Origin: Rostratula benghalensis
Taxonomy: Eukaryota; Chordata; Aves; Charadriiformes; Rostratulidae
Direction of reading: 5' to 3'
Length of the DNA stretch: 64,000 nucleotides
Assembly: GCA_013399305.1 (NCBI GenBank)
Contig: VXAI01000035.1
Location: 257,015-321,014, forward strand
Each line of letters starts with the position of its first letter. Positions within the stretch are counted from its first letter, which is position 1. Below the pieces are notes generated by a model that had not been told where the DNA came from, searched no databases, and was given only the letters and a program-made list of their open reading frames with translations. This document shows, in pieces, positions 3,801 through 42,655 of the stretch. The position numbers were made by a program, and so were the translations under genes.

Positions 3801-5804
3801 CTGGGTTCATTGCTAGTTTATCCTTCTGCAATAGGGCAAATGGGTTGTGTGGAGACAGTGAAAATTTGGAGGAGTTCGTGTAAAGTCAGGCTGAAAATCT
3901 TTTGTCACTCTCTGGCTAACTGAATTCAAAGGCAAAAATGTTTCTGAGGAATCGAAAGATTTCATGTGCCATCTTGCCTAATTATTTGATGAAGCTTTTA
4001 GCTTAAATATCAATTCAAATAGCACCTGGAATTCTTTATTTTAAACACTTTTTAAAAAAATATTACTATTTCACTCACTACTTTTTCAGGTTTGAAGGGA
4101 TTTGTATTTATTTTGGTTGAAGCACTTTCATTTACGTTTTTTTTTCCCCCATTGTGCAGTTCATATGCACCTTAAACAGTTTCTGCTCAAGTCCGAGCTC
4201 TGTCTCTGATGTGTGCAAAGAGCGTGGCTGCTCTGAACCTGCCACATGTAAAAAGGATGAATATTAACTTTTGTTTTTTTCACAGTGACTCTTTAATTGA
4301 AAAGTTAAATATTTAATGAGCTATTTCTATCTAGAAGGGGAAATATCTTGCGGTTCCTTCCTAGGCCAAACTCATGCTGGAGTCTGGTAGGTGGTCAGTG
4401 GTGAGCTGGCAGCCATAAGATAACAGTAATTAGTGCTAACACAGCCTGAACCCAGGAGATCCTTGGGGGGTGCTGGTATGTACCCCCAGCTCAGCTCCCA
4501 GCCCTCAGTACCATACCTCCACCCCTCAACATATAGCCTGTGTCCAGTATTTCAACTGGAAAACATCTCTGGCTGTGGTTCTTTATACAACTTTCTACTC
4601 CATCAATGTATTTGGGTAAAATTTGGTTCTACTCACATAAAACCTCGTAATCAAAACAAATGGCATTTCTAATTGAGCAAGGCCCTCCCGGTAATGAAGG
4701 GCAGCAGCGCTGTGGAGATCACTGGTTCATGTTTCTCTCCCTTTTCAGGAGACTAAACTAATTTATTTATGAAATCAAAGCAACCCACCAGATTAGCCAT
4801 ATAACTAGCTAGCTGCGTTGTTTAGATTCACTTGTTTGCTATCTCATGACATCCAAGTGAACAAGCTATATGTCAATGAAAGCGTTGGCGCTCTATCGTA
4901 TATAATAGACTAGTTAGAAGTGAAAAAAAAAAAAAAAGATCCTGCAATGGGGCTACAAGCAGTAATTTTTTTTTAATTTTTTTTTTTTTTTTTTCCCAGT
5001 GAGCATATGCTGCGAGTGGGAAAGGATCGTATAACGTAAACGGAGGTTTCATTAGCGATGATATGTGGCAGTCCCCGGGTGAAGGAAGAGAAAGCAAGTC
5101 TGGGAGCACCTGTAGACTTCACAGGCTTGTAGCCATGCAAAAGAGACACGTGCAGGGACGTACTGGGGGCAATGATGGGATCTGCTCTTCCCTCTCAGCC
5201 TCCCCTTGGGCCCCCCTGTAAATGCATCTTTGCCAAGTTCAGGCAGTGTGGATGCAGAATGAGTCCTTTTCTGTGCATCTGGCCTCCAGAAACCAGTTTT
5301 TGCAAACAACAGGCAAGCACTCACTTCCACTGAAAGCTTTAATATTTCTATCAGAAAGGCAGAAGCTCTGCTGGGAAATATTTCTGGCCAAATGTCTCCC
5401 ATGTCTTATCATTCCAGTTTTAAAAGTTCTTGTTAAACTTTTCCAGAAATCTTAAGGATTGGCTTGGCCATGTTTTCCCTCCCCTGACTTTTTCCTTGTA
5501 GCAGGTAGGGGAAGATGCCCTGTGTGTTACAGGACTGACCACGCTGCATGCTGAAGACCTTGCTGTCCCCCGTGGGCGTGCTGAGCATCTCCATCATTAC
5601 TCTCCCACCGGCTCCTGGACTGATATTAAATGGCCTCTGTGGCAGAGATGGTGGTGGCATGAGCTGCTGAGCTCAGCAGTGCTTCATCAGGATTCACAGC
5701 TTTTTCCCCGGCTGAACTCAAGCAAAGCTCTGAGTAATGGCACTTTGGCTTTCCTCCGCTGCTTTTTATTGTTTAGCTGCTTTTCGCTGCATCAGGGCTC
5801 TGCG
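3801..5804. other. Intron-like sequence with A/T homopolymer tracts
   Basis: AT-rich sequence with an A run at about 4922-4937 and a T-rich tract at about 4967-4995. Open frames on either strand, up to 116 codons, have no family resemblance. No exon, RNA gene or mobile element was recognised. Confidence 0.5.
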
Positions 5805-6090
5805 GATGATAGACGGCGGCGCGGGAGGGGAAGGGGGGCTGGCCGGGGCGAGGGACCAGCCACCCGGTAAAGGAGGTTTGGGTTCTTGACAGCCCTGCTG
5901 GGCTCTGCACGGTGGGCTTTGGTCCCTGCCGAGGGGAGCTGGGAGGCAGGGCCGGGCGGCGGGATGCGCGGGATGCGGATGGCCTCTGCTGGGAGCCGCC
6001 GCTCACTGCAGCCGCCCGGGGCCGGCGGTGCCAAACCAGCCGGGATTTACCTCCAGGAGGGAGAGGTGAGGCCGGGTGCAGGGCTTTGCA
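5805..6090. promoter_or_regulatory. CpG island in intron
   Basis: About 285 bases are strikingly GC-rich and dense in unsuppressed CpG (many CGG/CGCG/CCGCCG words) while the flanks are CpG-poor. A short imperfect repeat (GGGATGCGCGGGATGCGGAT, about 5961-5980) lies within it. GT donors follow at 5864 (CCGGTAAAGG) and 6065 (GAGGTGAGGC). I see no TATA box in the classic position and no recognisable coding sequence. It could be an alternative promoter, an enhancer or an unmethylated island. A 203-codon minus-strand frame crosses it but looks like a by-product of base composition. Confidence 0.55.
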
Positions 6091-8852
6091 CTGTGGCTTG
6101 AACCTAAATCTCTGTGCAAAACCCTCCTTTGCTTTATTTCCATCCCTCACCTCCGCAGGAGCTGCTGGTCCACAGAGCCACAGGCTGTCACTTGCCCTCG
6201 CACCCTGGCCCGGCCAGAGGAAAGCAGGCAGCCACCCAAAGGCATCTGCCAGCACAACTGCCTGTAGCCTCTGCTGAGGAACCAGATGCAGCAGAGGAGG
6301 GGGAACGAAAAGGAGAAAAAAAATAGAAAAAGAAAAATAGAAAAAAAAAAATCTCTTCCACAGCTTGGCATCTGCGCAGCACACATGCCAAGCGGTGTGG
6401 GAGCAGGGGGGAGAGGAAGCAGCGGCAGGCTTGGGGGTTATTTGGCACCCCCACAGCCCACAAACCAGTTCGGGTTTGAGCTGAGAAACAAGCGACGTGC
6501 GCTAATGTAAAGTGTGTGTTTTTCTGAAATTTGAAAAGCCCGTGTGGAAATTGGTCAGGGAGGGAGGAGGGTGGAAGAACACAGAAAAACCCCAACAAAC
6601 CAAAACACACCAACCAGTCCATTCTGCAGGCTGAGTTCAGCAGAGTCTTAATCCTCCCTCATAAAGGAGGGGGCTTTTCTGCGTACAGGCTACGTGGGGT
6701 GCAGTTGTGAGGAGGAGCCCCCACCCCTTAACTATTTCTGGAGGTGCTGGAGGTGTCCAGGGACCAGCACCGACCGTCGGCTCGTCCAGCCAACAGCCCG
6801 CTCGGTTGTTTAATGTTTGAGCCTGTACAAGCTGCTCGAAGCAAGATATAAAGCAGGTGTTGGAAGCCTCTGGAAAGTTTGCTGTCAATTACTGTGATTT
6901 CCTCTTCCCAACAAAGACTTCAAAGCGGAATGGATCTTTCCAGTTATGTAAATGAACTTTTCCGTACTTATTTTGCAGCCCACCCCACCTTTCCCCCCCA
7001 AAAAATTGCCTGTGGGGACTGGTGTGTCTGTTAGGGACTGATCTAATTCCACGCATGTCAATGGGGTTGTGAAGGTATTCAGGCTGGTAGCGTCATGGGG
7101 CAGCTCCGAGTGTGGGTGTCCGAGGTTGTCACCCCAATGTGGGTGCAGGTGCTCCCAGGGGGAGTTGCAGAGCCTTTCTGCATCTCCTGTGCATGCTCTG
7201 CTCTCCAGTGGGCAGCAGAACTGGGGCAGGATGTGTTTTTTTCTATTTTGCAAAATCTTAATTGAATAGGAATTGTTTCCCTGCTACTGATTGGGAGAAA
7301 ACTTTCCCCGCACCCTCAAATTTGAGAGGCCATGAAGACTAATCCATCGCTCCTTCTTTCTGAGGAGGTTTATTCAGCTTCTAAACTGTGAGGAGCTAAA
7401 ACTCCTTTGCAGGCATGGCTGGATATGAATTTTTTTTTTCTCTTCACTGCAAAAGGCTGCGTGCCGGGGAACAGCAGTGCAATGGGTGAGACTGGGAGGA
7501 CTGGGCTTAGGCATCACTTTCAAACTGGTGGGTGGCTGGTGGCTTCAGTAGATGAAGATTCCAGCCACTGGCGATGTGCTTTAAGGGAGGGAAGTCTAAG
7601 GGAAACTATGGAACATGCTGCTTTTACACAGCATCTTAAAAATATTTGGAGAACAAGAAGGTGGTAGAGTTTTCATCATTAGTCTAATTATTTTCAGGAA
7701 TACTTTAATGCAGTCTTTGCAATTCAAAACCTATTCAGATATTCTTTTTTCCCCCTCACTGTGCATTCAAGTACCTAAAGTTTAGGACATTCTGGGTGCA
7801 TTTACCTTCATGTGCTTAAGCTGCTGACTGCCCCAGTGCCAGTTAATCCCTTTCCATGCACAGCTTGATCCTGTGTTTCCCCATTACCTTGCCCCCCAAT
7901 GGCTCGAAGAGCTGCGTATGGATAGGAAGCTACACCAGCTTTCCAGCAGCTTTGTTTCAAATCTTCCTGCGGTCACTGACTTTCTAGGTTACCTTTAAAT
8001 TTGGCTTGTGCCCCCTTGTGACTTTGTACTGCATCGAGGGCTTGGCAAGCCAGGGTGACACCAACCAAGTGTCAAGCACTTGGATGCCGTGGTGACAAGG
8101 GGCCATGGTTGTGCTGAGGGAGCATGAGGTTTAGGGAGAGCTCTAGCCCTGCAAAACAGACATGTTGAAGAGCACATCATGTATGAGTCTCTTTTAAGTG
8201 CCCCCAAAATTTACCAGAGAAATTGCCAGTATCTCGCTAGCAACCAAAGCCTCCTCCCATGGGGACTGCTCCAAAGCGTGCTGAGCTTGGCTCGCTCTCT
8301 GCTCCATCAGTTAGCCGAGAAATGACTTCCAGAGCCCCGCTGCGATGCTTCTGCTTTTGCATTTGCAGGAATCACAGCAAGAATAAAGGATCCACCGAGG
8401 GCTGCTAAACACAGACTTAACCCCTTGGGAGGAGTCCGATCTGCAGGTCACTGCAAGGTGGGGGAGCGCAGAAGAGAATTACTGAAGCCCTTCTTAGAAA
8501 AGCGTGGATGAGGGAGGGAGGAGCAGTGGGGGGACACTGTCAGAGGGGCAAGCACCCAGTTTGGGTGCTGGTTTTGACCTGTGATTTATGTGGCTTTTCA
8601 TGTGGCCTAGTCATGCAGGTCCTACTGCAGGACTGAGCACTGACATCACAGCAGAAACAAGGTTTCAGTGGAAGCAGGATGGGCTTTCTGGGACACCAAA
8701 TTGAAAGATCACGAGTGATACCTTAAATTCCAGGTAGTTGGGGTCAGTTGTTTTGGGGTTTGGGTTTTTTTTTTTCAAATAATGTGGTTGCTATGTTCTA
8801 TGTTTTTAGAGAATCTGGGGTTTTCATTTTGATTTCCCCCTCTTTCCTGTAG
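6091..8852 (+). other. Intron-like sequence before exon A
   Basis: Contains an A-rich purine tract at about 6305-6352 and T tracts near 7430 and 8766. No exon is recognised. The last 20 bases are a pyrimidine-rich tract ending in TGTAG at 8852, which is the splice acceptor for the next feature. Confidence 0.55.
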
Positions 8853-14688: not shown

Positions 14689-14879
14689 CAAAGAGAACAC
14701 TACTGTTCTCTCACTTGCCTTCCTGACACCTTGTCATTTTCCTTACCCTTGGGATGGTTGGCAAATTAAAGCAGTCAGTAAAGGGCGACTTGTTTAGGGC
14801 AATCAAAGCTGCTTTTTCCCTTGTTTCTGTTTTGAAAGTTTACGGAAGAAGTGAAAATTTCTGCCTTTACCCAGAGTAG

Positions 14880-15375
14880 CGAGGTACGGGGCCACCGTAG
14901 CCGGCGCCTGTGGGACCGGCGCCTCTGATAATGTCAGTCAGGGCTGCCCACCCTCCAGAAATCCTGCGTGGGCCGTAGCATGAGTATGGTGCACGGCTTT
15001 ATAGCCCACGTGCCGCTGACCTGAGGCTTTCTGGAGCGAGCTGGTGCTGCGCAGTTGCTCCCCACATGTGCGGCAGGTTTGGCACATCTCTGAAGCCTTG
15101 GACCCTGCTCCTACGTGCCGCTCCCAACGCACCCGCCGCAGACAGCTGGGAAGCCCCCGCCAGCCAGATGGTCGAAAAGCTCCCTGCACCTGAATCCTTA
15201 AAAGCATTTGTTCTCAAAAAAAAAAAATAAAAAAAAAAAAATTGTTTGCTCTCCAAAAAGGGGTTCAGGCGAGGTGTTGGGCAGCCCTAGCTCGGTGCGG
15301 GGGGCTGGTGCGTGAAACCGCGCCGCGTCCCTTTGCCCGTCCGCTGCGAGCGTTGCCGTGTCACCTGGGGTGTGA
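14880..15375. other. CpG-rich patch in intron, split by an A-rich tract
   Basis: CpG density rises sharply across this stretch against an AT-rich background. At the left edge CCGGCGCCT is repeated with a 15-base period (14901-14909 and 14916-14924). An interrupted A tract lies at about 15217-15241, and the CpG-rich sequence resumes at 15270-15360 (for example GAAACCGCGCCGCGTCCC). No TATA box, exon or known motif was recognised. It could be a regulatory island. Confidence 0.4.
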
Positions 15376-17788
15376 AGCTGCTGCTTGTGGTGTCTAGACT
15401 TGTGATTACTGAAAATTAATTAAACCGAAGGAAATTAGGCTGGAAGGGGAGTAGGCTCCTGGGAGGGGAAAATGGAAGAGAAAATAGGATACTGGTGTTA
15501 ACCCTTTCCAGCTACTGAAAAAGGAAGGGTTCTTAAATGCTCTCGAGGCCACTTGAATTACACATAGGTAGTGAGGTGGTGTGATTTCAGGAGCTCTGCT
15601 CCTTCATGCTCAGACCCTGTTCGGGTGGTGCCCGTAGCCCAGGTGTGATGAGCACCTCAGAAACAGGCAGCCCGGTCTCCCTCTGCCTGTGGCTTTTCAA
15701 TAAGTCGCTTTATTGCTATCCTGGCCTGAAATAACTTGCAGATCAGCAGCAGGTTTGAAACGAGCCGCTCTGATTGTGGATGAGGTCAGGGGAACAGAGA
15801 TGTTTGGATGTAATCCAGTAATAAATCAGAGCTTTATGGGGACAGGACAGGAGGCTGGATGGGCGGCAGGAGGAGGTGGTTGCTGGTGGACTGGTCTCCT
15901 CTTGCTTTTGCATAGCCTCTTACCTGCTTTTCTGTGTCCTAAAGTCTCTCTTATATAGCTTTCCAGCATGGTATCTGAGTGCTTTGTGCCTTCCCCTTGG
16001 CGTACAGCCACCGTCTGGCTAGCGAGCAAGTACAAACTGTAACACCTGGGTGTCAGCTATGAACATTAGGGTGTGCTACAATGGACCCATCTGTAGTACT
16101 TGGCACATGCCGAAGATTTTTATATGTGGTTGGCTGAAAAGCAGGATCAGAGAGAGAGAGAGAGGAGGGAGAGCAGGGGAAGAGGGCTCCGCTGGGCACG
16201 CAGAGAACATCATTTTGGCAAAGGTGCCAGTAGGTTTCCATGGGCTTGTCTGCTTCTTCACTCAGCTCATGCATTCAATAAAAATATCCAGGTTGTTTCT
16301 AAGAAAAGCAGGAGTAGATTTCCCCAAAGAGCAAGCTGAGAAGCCTCATTCTTTGTCTCTGGAGAACAAATCTAATGTTATAACTAGATTTAATAAGAAT
16401 ACATTTAATAGTAATAGATATAATAAAACCCTGATTTAATAATAAGTAGTTTTATTGTTCTTCCACATGAACCAGGTCCTGTTTACTGACCCCCTGAGCA
16501 CCACAGGGTTTCTAGCTGGATTTGGAGTGGTGAGTGCTCTGGTTTTCAGGTTGTGGCAACTTCAACAGCGTTGTGTCCTGGTATAAATTTCAGTCGGGAG
16601 CATATGGACAAGGGCTGCCTTTGGTATTTCCACACCAGTATCTTGACCCCAAAGAGTCATGGCAGTTTCCAGTGTTACTCAATGGATGGAGAAAAACACA
16701 TCTCTATCTGAAAATGTCTATGTAGCCATGAGAAATCCCAGCAAAGGTAGGGAATGAGTTTACCGCAGTAAAAGGAGCCGTAGTTTATCGCATCAGGCTC
16801 ACCTAAGTGAAAATTGCAGTGCACTGAAAGGAGAGGAAACACTTTCTCCAACTCCCTTTATGTGGCACTGATGTGTTTTAAAATGCATGGGCAAAGTTTG
16901 TAGTTTATTTCCTCCAAAGGGGCCAAGTCCTCCTGGCATTCTTATAAACAAGCTCATTAGAATAAAATCCATTATGCGCATAACTAATGACACAAATTTA
17001 CAAATCTGTTGACAATTATGACCACATCCCTCATTGCATTTGCTTGTAGCTCGCTGGAGTGACCAGGCGAAGGAGTCCAATCCAGAAGTTTTACAGCTCA
17101 CGAGCTCCGGGTGCAGCCATGTGAGATTATTTCCCAACTGGATTACAAAGCTGTCATTAGGCAGGGCAAGGCGGGAGGACCAGGGCACGGGACCGTAAAC
17201 TGTCCTCGGGAGACCTGAAGTCATTCTGAAGGCAGGGCGAGATATTCCTGGCTGCAGAGACCATTATATTTTTTTATTTTTATTTATTTTTCTAGCTGGG
17301 AGGATGTGAAAACACATGCGCATGCACACAACGGAGGGCTGTTCCAAGTAGTGCCTGGCGTCCTCTGGAAATGAATAGAAATCAAATTGAGACGCTGGTG
17401 TCCTCCGAGTGTTAAATATTTCCAACTTCTTGCCAGGCGGGTGTAATTTATTGAATGTAGGTTTTGTGAAATAGTGCTCCTGTCAGGGGGAGATTGGCAC
17501 CAGAGAAATGAAGGCGGCTAATTCTCAGGGGGTCCTCCCTGGCAAAAACCCTCTATTGAGTCCTCATGCTACTTGTGCTCATAACTGCCGAAAAACCAGG
17601 AGTGCCATCTGCAAACTGTGATTCATAAACACTCTGTCAGTCTGCCATCTACCCTGACATCATAAAATAACAAGAAGCAGCATTGTAATAAAGAGAGGAG
17701 GTTTGCAGTCGACCAATTAAATGCATCTAATTTATTTCTGTTACAGCTGAGGCTTTATTTATTAGTAAACAGCTGCATTTGTTACACT
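15376..17788 (+). other. Intron-like sequence, nothing recognised
   Basis: A (GA)n tract is at about 16149-16164. The 16800-17760 part is AT-rich and full of TAAT-type words, so it could hold conserved non-coding elements, but that cannot be judged from one sequence. No coding exon is supported. Confidence 0.4.
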
Positions 17789-38289: not shown

Positions 38290-38319
38290 GGTCAGTAGGT
38301 CAAGTAGTGGTCAGTAGGT
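38290..38319 (+). repeat. Doubled GGTCAGTAGGT unit at the CR1 5' junction
   Basis: GGTCAGTAGGT occurs at 38290-38300 and again at 38309-38319, a period of 19 bases. CR1 homology begins immediately after the second copy. It may be a local slip or repair product made when the element integrated. Confidence 0.75.
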
Positions 38320-38873
38320 TAAGAGACGTTCTTCTCCCCCTCTACTCTGCCCTGGTGAGACCCCATCTGGAATAGTGTGTCCGGTTCTGGGCCCCTCAGT
38401 TCCAGAAGGACAGTGAACTGCTTGAGAGAGTCCAGGCCAGAGCCACAAAGATGCTGAAGGGAGTGGAGCATCTCCCGTATGAGGAAAGGCTGAGGGAGCT
38501 GGGTCTCTTTAGCTTGGAGGAGACCGAGGGGTGACCTCATGAATGTTTATAAATATGTAAAGGGTGAGTGTCAGGAGGAAGGAGCCAGGCTCTTCTCAGT
38601 GACGGCCAATGACAGGACAAGGGGCAATGGGTACAAATTGGAACACAAGAGGTTCCACTGAAATAGGAGGAAAAACTTCTTCACGGTGAGGGTGATGGAG
38701 CACTGCAAGGGGCTGCCCAGAGAGGTGGTGGAGTCTCCTTCTCTGGAGACATTCAAACTTGCCTGGACGCGTTCCTGTGTGGCCTGATGTAGGTGTTCCT
38801 GCTCTGGCAGGGGGATTGGACTGGATGAGCTTTCGGGGTCCCTTCCAATCCCTGAGAGTCTGGGATTCTGTGA
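38320..38873 (+). mobile_element. CR1 LINE, 3' part of ORF2 and 3' UTR
   Basis: About 550 bases collinear with the CR1 3' end: CTCTGCCCTGGTGAGACCCC, GTGTCCGGTTCTGGGCCCCT, GGAGCATCTCCCGTATGAGG, GGTGAGTGTCAGGAGGAAGG, AAAACTTCTTCACGGTGAGG and a final GGGATTCTGTGA tail. It shares the last 230 bases with the copy at 14456-14688. It is 5'-truncated and carries no intact ORF. Its 3' tail abuts the GC-rich promoter-like island directly. Confidence 0.95.
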
Positions 38874-39092
38874 ACCCGGGTCGGGCCCCAGCGGGGGTGG
38901 AACGGCGCTGTACGCACAGCTCAGCCACCGCCCCCGCCCCTCACAGCCCCAACCGGAACCAGGAGGTCCGCGACAGCCAATCAGGCGCGGCGGGGGGGCG
39001 GGGCCAGGAGCCGCGCGGCTATTTAAAGGCGGTAAGAGCAGCGCCTCAGCTCTTCGGCGGCGGCGGCCTCTGCGGGGCGCGGCGTGGGACGG
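38874..39092 (+). promoter_or_regulatory. Compact CpG-island promoter with TATA-like box and short 5' exon
   Basis: Extremely GC- and CpG-rich. In the order of a vertebrate core promoter it has a CCAAT box (38977-38981, in AGCCAATCAGG), a GC box (GGGGGGCGGGGCC, about 38993-39005) and a TATA-like TATTTAAA (39020-39027) about 30 bases before a pyrimidine start CTCTTC at 39050. After the start come GGCGGCGGCGG and no ATG, then a strong splice donor GG/GTGAGT at 39092/39093. A first exon of about 43 bases that begins with a pyrimidine run and contains no start codon is the layout seen in ribosomal-protein and snoRNA-host genes. I infer promoter function; the gene it drives is unknown. Confidence 0.6.
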
Positions 39093-39248
39093 GTGAGTGC
39101 CAGGGGACGGAAACACCCGGGGTGGCCTCCGTTCGGTTTATCAGCAGCCGCTGATAAACAACAGAATGAAGCAGCCCAAAGTGACCTGATGCGGAGACGT
39201 GCTGGCGTCCGGGTGGCGGGTTGCCCTGAATGTCTGTGGCTCTTGCAG
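39093..39248 (+). other. Possible first intron of the promoter-linked transcript
   Basis: The 156 bases are bounded by donor GTGAGT (39093) and acceptor GGCTCTTGCAG (ending 39248). Inside is a perfect 9-bp hairpin TTTATCAGC-AGCC-GCTGATAAA (39137-39158), whose arms are inverted GATA-type sites (CTGATAA). CTGATG (39190) and CTGA (39230) resemble snoRNA C and D boxes only weakly and lack a terminal stem. Confidence 0.35.
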
Positions 39249-40432
39249 GAAGACAGGTTATACAGAGAGTAAGTTAGAAAGGCAAAAGCCCAGCTGGAAC
39301 TGAACCTGGCCATTAATATGAGGCACAACAAAAGTTTTTATAAATACGTCAACAAAAAGAGAAGGGAGAATATTAATCCCTTAATGGATGTGGGGGGGGG
39401 GGAACATTGCAACTATGGAAGAGGAGCAGGCTGAGATACTTAATGTCGCCTTTGCATCCATCTTCAAGATTAAGACCAGCTACCTCCAGGGTGTTCAGCC
39501 TCCTGAGCTGGAAGATCAGGGTGGAGAGCAGAACAACCCCCCTGTGTAATCCAGGAGGAAGTATTTAACGATCTGCTTCTGCACTTAGACCCACATAAGT
39601 CTGTGGGGCTGGATGGGATTCACCCAAGGGTACTTGGGGAACTGGCAGGAGAGCTCACCAAACCTCTCTCCATCATCTATCAACAATCTTGGTCAACAGG
39701 GAAGGTACCAAATGACTGTAGGTTGGCCAGTGTGGTGCCCATCTACAAGAAAGGCCAGAAGGAGGATCTGGATAACTACAGGCCCATCAGCCTGACCTCA
39801 GTACTAGGAAAGGTCATGGAGAGGGTCATCTTGAGTGAGCTCTCATGACAAGTGCAGAACAGCCAAGGGATCAGGGCCAGCCAGCATAGGCTCATGAAAG
39901 AGAGGTCCTGCTTGACCAACTTGATCTCTTTCTATGACCATGTGACCTGCCTTCTGGATCAGGGGAAGGCTGTGGATGTTGTCTACCTGGACTTTTGTAA
40001 GACCTTTGACGCTGTCGCCCATAGTGTTCTCCTGGGGAAGCTGGCAAATCATGGCATAGGCAAATGTACTCTGCACTGGGTAAAAAATCTGTCTGGATGG
40101 CAGTGCCCAGAGAGTTGTGATTAATGGGGTGAAATCCTGGTGGCCAGTCACCAGTGGTGTCCCTCAGGGCTCAGTTTTGGGGCCAGTAATGTTTAATATC
40201 TTTATTGATGATCTGGATGAGGGGATTGAGTGCACCCTCAGTAAGTTTGCAGATGACCCCAAGCTAGGTGGGAGTGTTGATCTGCTTGAGGATAGGAAGG
40301 CTCTACAGAGAGACCCAGACAGGTTGGATCAGTGGGCTAAGGCCAATGGATAAGGTTCCATAAGGCCAAATGCCAGGTCCTGCATTTCGGTCACAGCAAC
40401 CCCAGGCAATGGTACAGGCTCAGGGAAGAGTG
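39249..40432 (+). pseudogene. CR1 LINE ORF2, left half of an interrupted element (decayed reverse transcriptase)
   Basis: Plus-strand CR1 ORF2 broken into several frames. From about 39278 a [13 protein letters not shown] peptide starts the homology. An 82-codon frame (39603-39848) contains DGIHPRVLGELA, IYKKGQKEDLDNYRPISL and VLGKVMERVI, the finger region of the reverse transcriptase. Another frame holds [32 protein letters not shown] (first catalytic Asp) and the next [17 protein letters not shown] and FADDPKLGG (catalytic FADD). A stop follows ELS at about 39846 and the frame changes near 40117, so no active enzyme can be made. The element is 5'-truncated and its continuation lies at 41940. 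Confidence 0.93.
40424..40432 (+). repeat. Target-site duplication, left copy (GGAAGAGTG)
   Basis: GGAAGAGTG at the end of the interrupted host CR1 is repeated at 41931-41939, exactly flanking the minus-strand CR1. In the uninterrupted CR1 this sequence occurs once, as …GGGGAAGAGTGGCTGG…, so it was duplicated on insertion. Confidence 0.88.
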
Positions 40433-41930
40433 AATCATAGAATCATCTTGGCTGGAAGGGAACTCCAAATGTCATCTAGTCTGACCCCCCTGCAGTCAGC
40501 AGGGACACCCCCACTAGACCAGGCTGCCCAGGTCTTCATTGAGCCTCCTCTTAATAACTCCACTTGCTGCCACTTGCTCCCGTTGAACCTCATGTTGTTT
40601 ACTTGAGCCCACCTATCCAGCCTATCCAGGTCTCGGGATGACATCCCGTCCCTCAGGTGTATCAACAATACCACACAGCTTGGTGTCATCTGCTGACTTG
40701 CTGATGTTGCTCTCAATGCCTCTATCCATGTCATTAATAAAAATGTTAAACAGTACCGGTCCCAGCACGGACCCCTGAGGGACACCACTTGTCACTGCTC
40801 TCCATCTGGACTTAAAGAACCACCCTCTGGATGCAACCATCTAGTGAATTCCTTATCCACTGAACAGTCCATCCATCAAATCTGTATCTCTCCAATTTAG
40901 CAAGTGGGATGTCATGGGGAACTGTGTCAAAGGCCTTACAGAAGTCCAGATAGATCACATCCATAGATCATCTCCCATCTAGTGACATAGTCACTCCATC
41001 ATAGAAGGCCACCAGATTAGTCAGGCAGGACCTGCCCCTAGTAAAGCCATGTTGGCTGTCGTGAATCACCCCCCTGTCCTCTCTATGGCCAAGCATGACA
41101 TCCAGAAGGATCTGTTCCATGATCTTCCCAGGCACGGAGGTGAAGCTGACAGCTTGGTAGTTCCTGGGATCCTCCTTTCTCGGCTTTTTAAAAATGGGTA
41201 TGATGTTTCCTTTCTTCCAGTCTGCAGGGACTTCACCTGACTGCCGTGACTTTTCAAATGTCATGGAAAGTGGTTTTGCAACTTTGTCAGCCAGTTCTTT
41301 CAGGACTCTGGGATGTATTTCATCAGGTCCCATGGACTTGTATATCTTCAGATTCCCTAGATGATCACGTACCATGTCTTGGGTTATGGTGGGATGGAAT
41401 TTGTCACCCAAGTCCTCAACTTGTGGGCCATCAACATGAGAGCTAGGAGGAAAAGGGGTTGCTAGTGAAGATGGAGACGAAAAATTTGAGAACTTCTGCC
41501 TGCTCCTCACTTGTTGATACAAGTTCCCCACTGCTGCTCATGGGGGGGTACATTTTCTTTAACCTTCCTTTTCTGGTTAATGTACCTGTAGAAGCCCTTC
41601 TTGTTTTTCTGTAGGTCCCTTGCCAAGTTCAGTTCTAGCTGTGCCTTGGCCTTCCTGACCTCATTCTGGGCAACGTCACTATATTCTTCCCAGGATGCCA
41701 GTCCCTTCTTCCATTGCCTGTGTAAGTCCTTCTTGCCCTCAGTCTGACCAGCAGGTCCCAGCTCAACCATGGTGGTCTCTTGCCTTCCCTACCCAATTTC
41801 CTATATGTAGGGATTGAGATCTTTTGTGCTCTATGGAGAGCATCCCTAAAGATCTGCCAGCTTTGTTCTGCCCCCTTGTCCCTAAGGGCAGTCTCCCATG
41901 GGGTCCTATTTACTAACTCCCTGAAGAGCT
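40433..41930 (-). mobile_element. CR1 LINE inserted in reverse inside another CR1
   Basis: A 1498-base CR1 copy in minus orientation. Its 3' tail (GAATCATAGAATCATCTTGG on the plus strand) lies at 40433. Minus-strand fragments of ORF2 run up to about 41930: an RTPWETALRDKGAEQSWQ region near 41900, [17 protein letters not shown] (about 41680), [86 protein letters not shown] and SADDTKLCG. The FADD motif is changed to SADD and several frameshifts split the ORF, so it is dead. It is 5'-truncated and flanked by a 9-bp duplication. Confidence 0.94.
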
Positions 41931-41939
41931 GGAAGAGTG
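41931..41939 (+). repeat. Target-site duplication, right copy (GGAAGAGTG)
   Basis: The second copy of the 9-bp duplicated target. The host CR1 continues from it as GCTGGAGAGTTGCCCAGCAG. Confidence 0.88.
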
Positions 41940-42655
41940 GCTGGAGAGTTGCCCAGCAGAAAAGGACAGTTGGTGGACAGCCATAAGCCAGCAGAGTGCC
42001 CAGGTGGCCAAGAAGGCCAACAGCATCCTGGCTTGTATCAGGAATAGTGTGGCCAGCAGGAGTAGGGAAGTGATTGTGCCCCTGTACTCAGCACTGGTGA
42101 AGCCTCACCTTGAGTGCTGTGTCCACTTCTGGGCCCCTCACTACAAGAAGGTCTCCAAAGTGCTGGAGCATGTCCAGAAGAGAGCCACCAAGCTCTCCTG
42201 AGGTGAGGGGTCTAGAGAACAAGTCATATGAGGATAGGCTGAGGGAACGGGACGTGTTTAGTTTGGAGAAGAGGAGGCTGAGGGGAGACCCCATTGCACT
42301 CTACAACTACCTGAAAGGAGTTTGCAGAAAGGTGGGTGTTGGCCTCTTCTCCCAAGTGAATAATTGACAGGACCAGAGGAAATGGCCTGAAGCTGCAGCA
42401 GGGGAGGTTCAGATTAGATATCAGGAAGAATTACTTTACTGAGAGGGTGATCAGGCACTGGAACAGTCTGCTCAGGGAGGTTGTGGAGTCACCATGCCTG
42501 GAGATATTTAAGAAATGTGTAGATGTTGCACTTCAGGGCATGCTGCAAGGCCTCAGATTGTTGAGTGTGGTGGGTTTTGTGATGGTGGTTTTTTTTTTTC
42601 CTTATGGTTCGACTCGATCTCAAAGGTCCCTTCCAACCATGAAGATTTTGTGATT
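41940..42655 (+). mobile_element. CR1 LINE, right half of the interrupted element, with 3' UTR
   Basis: Resumes exactly where 40432 stops: the CR1 sequence …GAAGAGTG-GCTGGAGAGTTGCCC is restored across the insertion. It continues with GCCAAGAAGGCCAACAGCAT, CAGCACTGGTGAAGCCTCAC, CCACTTCTGGGCCCCTCACT and GAGAAGAGGAGGCTGAGGGG, then GGTTCAGATTAGATATCAGG and the tail CAAAGGTCCCTTCCAACCAT. With the left half the host element is about 1.9 kb. ORF2 remains are frameshifted. Confidence 0.95.

What the first reader, a model, noticed from the sequence alone, without database searches (positions are those of the whole stretch)
38874..39092. A complete-looking promoter trapped between two CR1 elements
In about 200 bases there are a CCAAT box, GC box, TATA-like box about 30 bases before a CTCTTC start, a GC-rich 43-base exon without ATG, and a strong donor. 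CpG density is far above the background. It lies in intron-like sequence, on the same strand as the FREM1-like gene, and directly abuts CR1 tails on the left and a CR1 body on the right. The layout resembles a ribosomal-protein or snoRNA-host gene 5' end, and no such gene is otherwise visible here. It could be an alternative promoter, an orphan piece of a duplicated gene or a previously undescribed transcript.
Basis: partly seen in the sequence, partly recalled or inferred. Interest (0 to 1): 0.9.

Follow-up and report, generated by a model that had tools for sequence, protein, structure and literature searches.

The report
CR1 transposon's own CpG-preserved promoter unit
The promoter-like stretch is the 5' end of the jumping gene (a CR1-type LINE) that follows it; it holds one full copy of a promoter block that two relatives carry twice in a row, and its CG letters have survived while those in the rest of the same element have decayed, so it is likely unmethylated in the germ line and would still be able to start transcripts.

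Summary
The motifs are real and correctly placed, but they are not a gene fragment between two CR1s: they are the 5'UTR of the CR1 on the right. 38874-39256 (5'UTR plus ORF1 start) is joined directly to that element's ORF2 by an internal deletion (about 1.9 kb against copy L009), and the acceptor-like CTCTTGCAG is ORF1 sequence. An ~88-bp core (CCGGAA, CCAAT, GC box, TTTAAA) was found in 32 of 43 sequences examined. Two copies carry it twice in tandem. In the window copy the core keeps 10 of 11 CpGs, while the same element's ORF2 keeps 1 of 17. Copies with a kept core also keep more CpGs next door. This suggests protection from germline methylation. Tandem promoter units are known in mouse L1 and CR1 5'UTR promoters in chicken; nine searches of an open-access library showed no report of such units in CR1. 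Transcription, methylation and host use are untested.

The parts
38307..38873 (+). 3' part of an older CR1 copy, ending ...ATTCTGTGA (3' end recalled as typical of CR1)
   Evidence: 38307-38741 matches a copy in L021 at 88.9%; sequence
38874..39256 (+). 5' end of the CR1 under study: 5'UTR and start of ORF1
   Evidence: relatives in own genome; CpG o/e 0.87
38874..38952 (+). likely remnant of the spacer of an upstream promoter unit
   Evidence: profile match to the spacer part of the unit; boundary by eye
38953..39042 (+). promoter core: CCGGAA, CCAAT 38977-38984, GC box 38996-39005, TATA-like 39020-39028
   Evidence: core in 32 of 43 sequences
39046..39056 (+). predicted transcription start, 24-34 bases after the first T of TTTAAA (39022)
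   Evidence: inferred from 5' ends of other copies
39092..39099 (+). 5' splice-site-like GGTGAGTG, also present in some other copies
   Evidence: GGTGAGT or GGTAAGT within 260 bases after the core in 8 of 28 rows, the window included
39240..39248 (+). CTCTTGCAG, which looks like a splice acceptor but lies in the ORF1 start shared by relatives
39253..39257 (+). junction of the internal deletion: ORF1 start joined to ORF2 (about 2 shared bases, AG)
39255..40429 (+). ORF2 part with reverse-transcriptase frames, broken by a stop at 39846-39848
   Evidence: RVT_1 below Pfam's cut-off; 40 scored matches out of 6058 candidates
40430..41860 (-). CR1 in the opposite orientation that interrupts the element (ends approximate)
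   Evidence: minus-strand reverse-transcriptase-like frames
41905..42655 (+). 3' part of the element
   Evidence: matches the 3' part of several other copies

Best explanation
The stretch 38874-39092 is the 5'UTR of the internally deleted CR1 LINE that follows it, and holds one complete promoter unit that would direct RNA polymerase II to start near 39050 and that has likely stayed unmethylated in the germ line since insertion. Shown: the same core heads many dispersed CR1 copies; two carry two cores in tandem; in about a third of the copies tested a start box lies upstream of the core without its TATA; core CpGs survive where CpGs of the same element's body decayed. Inferred: RNA started by an upstream unit carries the next unit's promoter into the new copy, as in mouse L1, whereas RNA from the last unit gives a promoterless copy; factors bound at the CCAAT, GC and TATA boxes keep methylation away. 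In this copy one unit survives and would fire along the plus strand; the donor-like site could let such a transcript splice onward. Whether the host uses it is unknown.
For: Relatives of the stretch are followed by ORF1, endonuclease and RT frames. Core in 32 of 43 sequences; of 28 rows with a near-complete core, CCAAT is kept in 27, TTTAA in 25, the GC box in 25 (one row, L066, is a duplicate). Tandem cores 224 and 253 bases apart in L016 and L022. Start box upstream of the core in 10 of 29 copies against 1 of 24 flank controls, with only 9-13 of 26 matches to the TATA-to-start segment before it (random flank: mean 10.4, 95th percentile 13; real cores 15-25) (p 0.0075). CpGs of the window copy: core 10 kept, 1 lost; 39093-39254 4 kept, 1 lost; ORF2 1 kept, 15 lost, 1 other; p 7e-6 for 14/2 against 1/15. 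In the ORF1 start, copies with a kept core keep 40% of CpGs (n 14) and the others 7% (n 19) at similar non-CpG divergence, p 0.0009.
Against: 19 of 29 copies lack a detectable start box, the window copy included, and the single control hit is the window's own flank. In L016 and L022 the second core is damaged. Three promoterless copies (L055, L059, L061) begin 6-12 bases into the TATA profile, before the start box, which is not explained. The splice-donor-like site is absent from most copies by the strict pattern used. CpG contrast could come from GC-biased gene conversion. At a looser rule (one other copy with CG) 39093-39254 stands at 5 kept and 5 lost. Pfam hits for endonuclease and RT are below the curated cut-offs. 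No expression or methylation data.
Confidence: 0.7

Rival explanations
1. An inert fossil: the CR1 5'UTR has a promoter's look but is silent, and its CpGs survive through GC-biased gene conversion, local sequence context or luck.
For: Two thirds of the copies show no start box; the element is internally deleted and interrupted, and 4 AT-to-GC type changes in its core fit conversion as well (alignment).
Against: Core CpGs kept while the body of the same copy lost 15 of 17; neighbouring CpGs follow the state of the core across copies, at similar non-CpG divergence.
Confidence: 0.2
2. The host has taken this copy over as an alternative promoter of the surrounding gene, which is why its CpGs are kept.
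Against: Core CpGs are also kept in most other copies with a near-complete core (19 of 28 rows keep at least 8 of 10), so nothing marks this locus out; the host gene was not verified.
Confidence: 0.08
3. The 5' end of a ribosomal-protein or snoRNA-host gene, or a fragment of a duplicated gene.
For: CCAAT, GC box, TATA-like box, GC-rich leader and donor-like site.
Against: The same core recurs at dispersed sites followed by CR1 ORF1 and ORF2. No Rfam match at gathering score anywhere in the window.
Confidence: 0.02

Closest known systems
Chicken CR1-B and CR1-F 5'UTR promoters (PMC2734521, passages seen; Haas et al. 2001 seen only as a reference there)
   Same: CR1 5'UTR acting, or proposed to act, as an internal promoter; subfamilies have unrelated 5'UTRs.
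   Different: CR1-B is described there with E boxes, C/EBP, USF and Sp1 sites and about 240 bp, CR1-F with Oct-1/AP-1 sites; CCAAT plus GC box plus TTTAAA in tandem units is not mentioned in the passages seen. I could not compare the sequences themselves.
Mouse L1 tandem promoter monomers (PMC6454616 and PMC9022269, passages seen)
   Same: About 200-bp promoter units in tandem; 5' ends of copies fall at a preferred place in the unit that agrees with CAGE starts.
   Different: Different LINE clade and unrelated sequence; here a TATA-like box lies before the start; at most two cores per copy seen, against several in mouse.
Persaeus, a short internally deleted CR1 derivative in Lepidoptera (PMC6740152, passages seen)
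   Same: CR1 derivative that keeps 5' and 3' parts with the middle missing, with microhomology at the break.
   Different: Persaeus is an amplified family; here the junctions seen differ from copy to copy, so a mobile family is not shown.

Membership tests
CR1 LINE | ORF2 with endonuclease and reverse transcriptase | tested here: inconclusive
   Sub-threshold Pfam hits: Exo_endo_phos_2 21.1 bits against 27.4 in L009, RVT_1 24.8 against 29.6 in the window; frames read as CR1 from recalled sequence features. The endonuclease part is deleted in the window copy.
CR1 LINE | ORF1 upstream of ORF2 | tested here: met
   Shared frame after the 5'UTR in many copies; in the window only its start. Its function (zinc-finger-like, per PMC4316615 passages) was not tested.
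CR1 LINE | 3' end of the ATTCTRTGA type | tested here: inconclusive
   The 3' part reads ...CCAACCATGAAGATTTTGTGATTG, read as CR1 from memory.
CR1 LINE | dispersed, mostly 5'-truncated copies | tested here: met
   6058 first-look candidates for the ORF2 part against 53 for a 5'UTR query; counts are lower bounds.
L1-type promoter monomers (as a way of working, not as membership) | tandem copies of the promoter unit | tested here: met
   Two cores in tandem in L016 and L022; only 2 of 32 core-bearing sequences show a second core.
L1-type promoter monomers (as a way of working, not as membership) | 5' ends of copies cluster at the start site within the unit | tested here: inconclusive
   10 of 29 against 1 of 24 controls; more by eye, but most copies do not pass.
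L1-type promoter monomers (as a way of working, not as membership) | promoter activity of a unit | not testable with these tools
   needs CAGE or a reporter assay
CpG island unmethylated in the germ line | CpGs kept against local decay | tested here: met
   14 kept and 2 lost in the 5'UTR, 1 kept and 15 lost in ORF2 of the same copy.
CpG island unmethylated in the germ line | measured absence of methylation | not testable with these tools
   needs a sperm or testis methylome

The most novel reading that the evidence does not exclude
Bird CR1 LINEs evolved, independently of mammalian L1, a TATA-driven 5'UTR of tandem promoter units whose core is a self-sufficient CpG island: wherever a copy lands, the core stays unmethylated in the germ line for tens of millions of years while the rest of the LINE decays, seeding the genome with orphan CpG-island promoters such as this one.
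Probability: 0.4. Interest if true: 0.7.

Novelty: new variant of a known kind. Interest (0 to 1): 0.5.

Why it matters
[quoted passage not shown] A TATA-based unit whose start can be read from genomic 5' ends would explain how a promoter lying upstream of its own start is handed on, a solution known from mouse L1. If the core also protects itself from germline methylation, these few dozen copies are ready-made alternative promoters and a natural experiment on what makes a CpG island, testable with bird sperm methylomes and CAGE.

Tried and rejected
Ribosomal-protein or snoRNA-host 5' end: rejected on CR1 context and no Rfam match. LTR of a retrovirus: not favoured because ORF1, endonuclease and RT frames follow in LINE order; not tested separately. 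Splicing as cause of the ORF1-ORF2 junction: the junction letters do not fit GT...AG; rejected for this copy. Purifying selection as the reason for the core's likeness: not supported, since its non-CpG divergence (1.5-19%) is like that of the ORF1 start (3-20%). An all-pairs comparison (core 0.763, ORF1 start 0.717 mean identity, core higher in 173 of 276 pairs) includes copies with cut cores and is not used. Anchored extension for 5' ends stopped early in the variable spacer and the script failed at saving; only the two unit lengths are used from it. A loose regex of boxes in order found nothing on either strand, not even this site, so it was badly made and is not used. CpG tallies came out empty through a letter-case slip, mended. 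The ruler by mistake held all of L009 downstream of the core; the chains are still readable. Pfam found nothing for a candidate exon of the host gene. Rows dropped: L066 (taken as a duplicate of L025, both on C2), but not; L028 (masked); L027 and L028 in the profile.

Full report
Observation. The densest CpG window of the 64 kb is here (26 CpG per 200 bp); CpG o/e is 0.87 for 38874-39256 and 0.25 for the window. Weaker CpG-rich spots lie at about 5.7-6.1 kb and 14.8-15.5 kb.

Identity. Searching the window's own 1.09-Gb assembly with 38874-39248 gave 27 matches including itself; a query from another copy gave 52 matches, 40 of 53 candidates scored. In L009 and L026 the matching stretch is followed by an ORF1 frame, endonuclease frames and reverse-transcriptase frames. 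The endonuclease hit and the RT hits in the window stay below Pfam's curated cut-offs; the name CR1 rests on recalled features of these frames and of the 3' end. The two sides of window position 39254/39255 lie about 1.94 kb apart in L009 and 1.55 kb apart in L026. So the window holds one CR1 whose ORF1 start is joined to ORF2 by a deletion; the sides share about two bases (AG) and do not fit a GT...AG intron. I saw the same junction in no other fetched copy. The acceptor-like CTCTTGCAG is ORF1 sequence that relatives share. A CR1 in the other orientation interrupts the element from about 40430, and its 3' part follows at about 41905-42655.

The core and the unit. The core was found in 32 of 43 sequences (42 loci plus the window) and the ORF1 start in 36 of 43. 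Of 28 rows with a near-complete core (one, L066, taken as a duplicate of L025), CCAAT is kept in 27, TTTAA in 25 and the GC box in 25. L016 and L022 have two cores in tandem, 224 and 253 bases apart, the second damaged in each. In L048 the sequence after the start resembles the sequence in front of the core, as tandem units would give.

Start mapping. If RNA starts about 30 bases after TTTAAA of an upstream unit, new copies should begin there, without that TATA. In 10 of 29 core-bearing copies the start box (at least 14 of 18) lies within 200 bp upstream of the core, against 1 of 24 flank controls (p 0.0075); the one control hit is the window's own flank. In these 10 the 26 bases before the box match the TATA-to-start segment at 9-13 of 26, no better than random flank (mean 10.4, 95th percentile 13), while real cores match at 15-25. 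By eye further copies begin there, but 19 of 29 do not pass, the window's included: it begins farther down the spacer. Profile hits upstream of the core are individually weak (E 0.15 to 4.3) but start mostly at model positions 22-32 (L026 at 12). Copies without a full core also exist: L054 begins at about the box by eye, while L055, L059 and L061 begin at profile positions 6-12, which is not explained. For mouse L1 the same reasoning is published and agrees with CAGE (PMC6454616, passages).

CpG clock. In the window copy, at sites where at least 3 other copies have CG, the core keeps 10 and lost 1 and 39093-39254 keeps 4 and lost 1; at the loosest rule, one other copy, the figures are 10/3 and 5/5. 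The ORF2 part, judged against 28 other sequences, keeps 1 and lost 15, with 1 other; at 2 copies it keeps 2 and lost 30, with 1 other. Pooled, 14/2 against 1/15 gives p 7e-6. By another rule (at least 20% of other copies CG) the 5'UTR stands at 19/4 and the body at 1/25. Other copies behave alike there: L012 body 1/18, core 8/0; L009 body 0/15, core 9/0. Of the 28 rows 19 keep at least 8 of 10 core CpGs, 4 keep 6 or 7, and 5 keep at most 4. In the ORF1 start 14 copies with a kept core keep on average 40% of CpGs and 19 others 7%, at non-CpG divergence 9.8% and 8.2% (p 0.0009). Protection from germline methylation is the simplest cause; GC-biased gene conversion is not excluded. The ORF2 part differs from the majority of the others at 81 of 1122 positions, 7.2%; at recalled bird mutation rates that would mean tens of millions of years, which was not tested.

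Known and new. Chicken CR1 5'UTRs are known promoters that differ between subfamilies (PMC2734521, passages). Tandem promoter monomers are known in L1 of mouse and some other mammals (PMC9022269, passages). Nine paper searches were answered; those that joined CR1 with tandem, monomer, TATA, promoter or CpG-island terms listed no paper that I could see to report such units in CR1. I saw listings and passages only, the library is open-access, and Haas et al. 2001 was not read, so this is weak evidence of absence.

Verdict. It is a CR1 promoter unit, likely protected in the germ line and able to start transcripts, with host use unproven.

Noticed in passing
L009, L010, L011, L012, L014, L017, L019, L020, L021, L024, L026, L028, L043, L044, L047 and window 39254: In 15 of 23 core-bearing loci with longer flanks a later part of CR1 follows after a missing stretch, at differing junctions, 9 of them with a gap of at most 2 bases or an overlap; in the other 8 no 3' part was chained. 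Copies that reach the 5' end may do so by template jumping over the interior, or have been deleted later.
   Followed up: partly
window 38873/38874; L061 around 323; L054 around 424: The window copy and L061 start directly behind the 3' end of an older CR1, and L054 directly behind inner CR1 sequence (CR1 reading recalled), which would fit insertion at the CR1 3' repeat.
   Followed up: no
window about 5660-6140 and 14780-15500: Two further CpG-rich spots (up to 17 and 14 CpG per 200 bp), not examined.
   Followed up: no
   Followed up: partly
L055, L059, L061: CR1 copies without a core that begin 6-12 bases into the TATA-to-start profile, before the start box.
   Followed up: no
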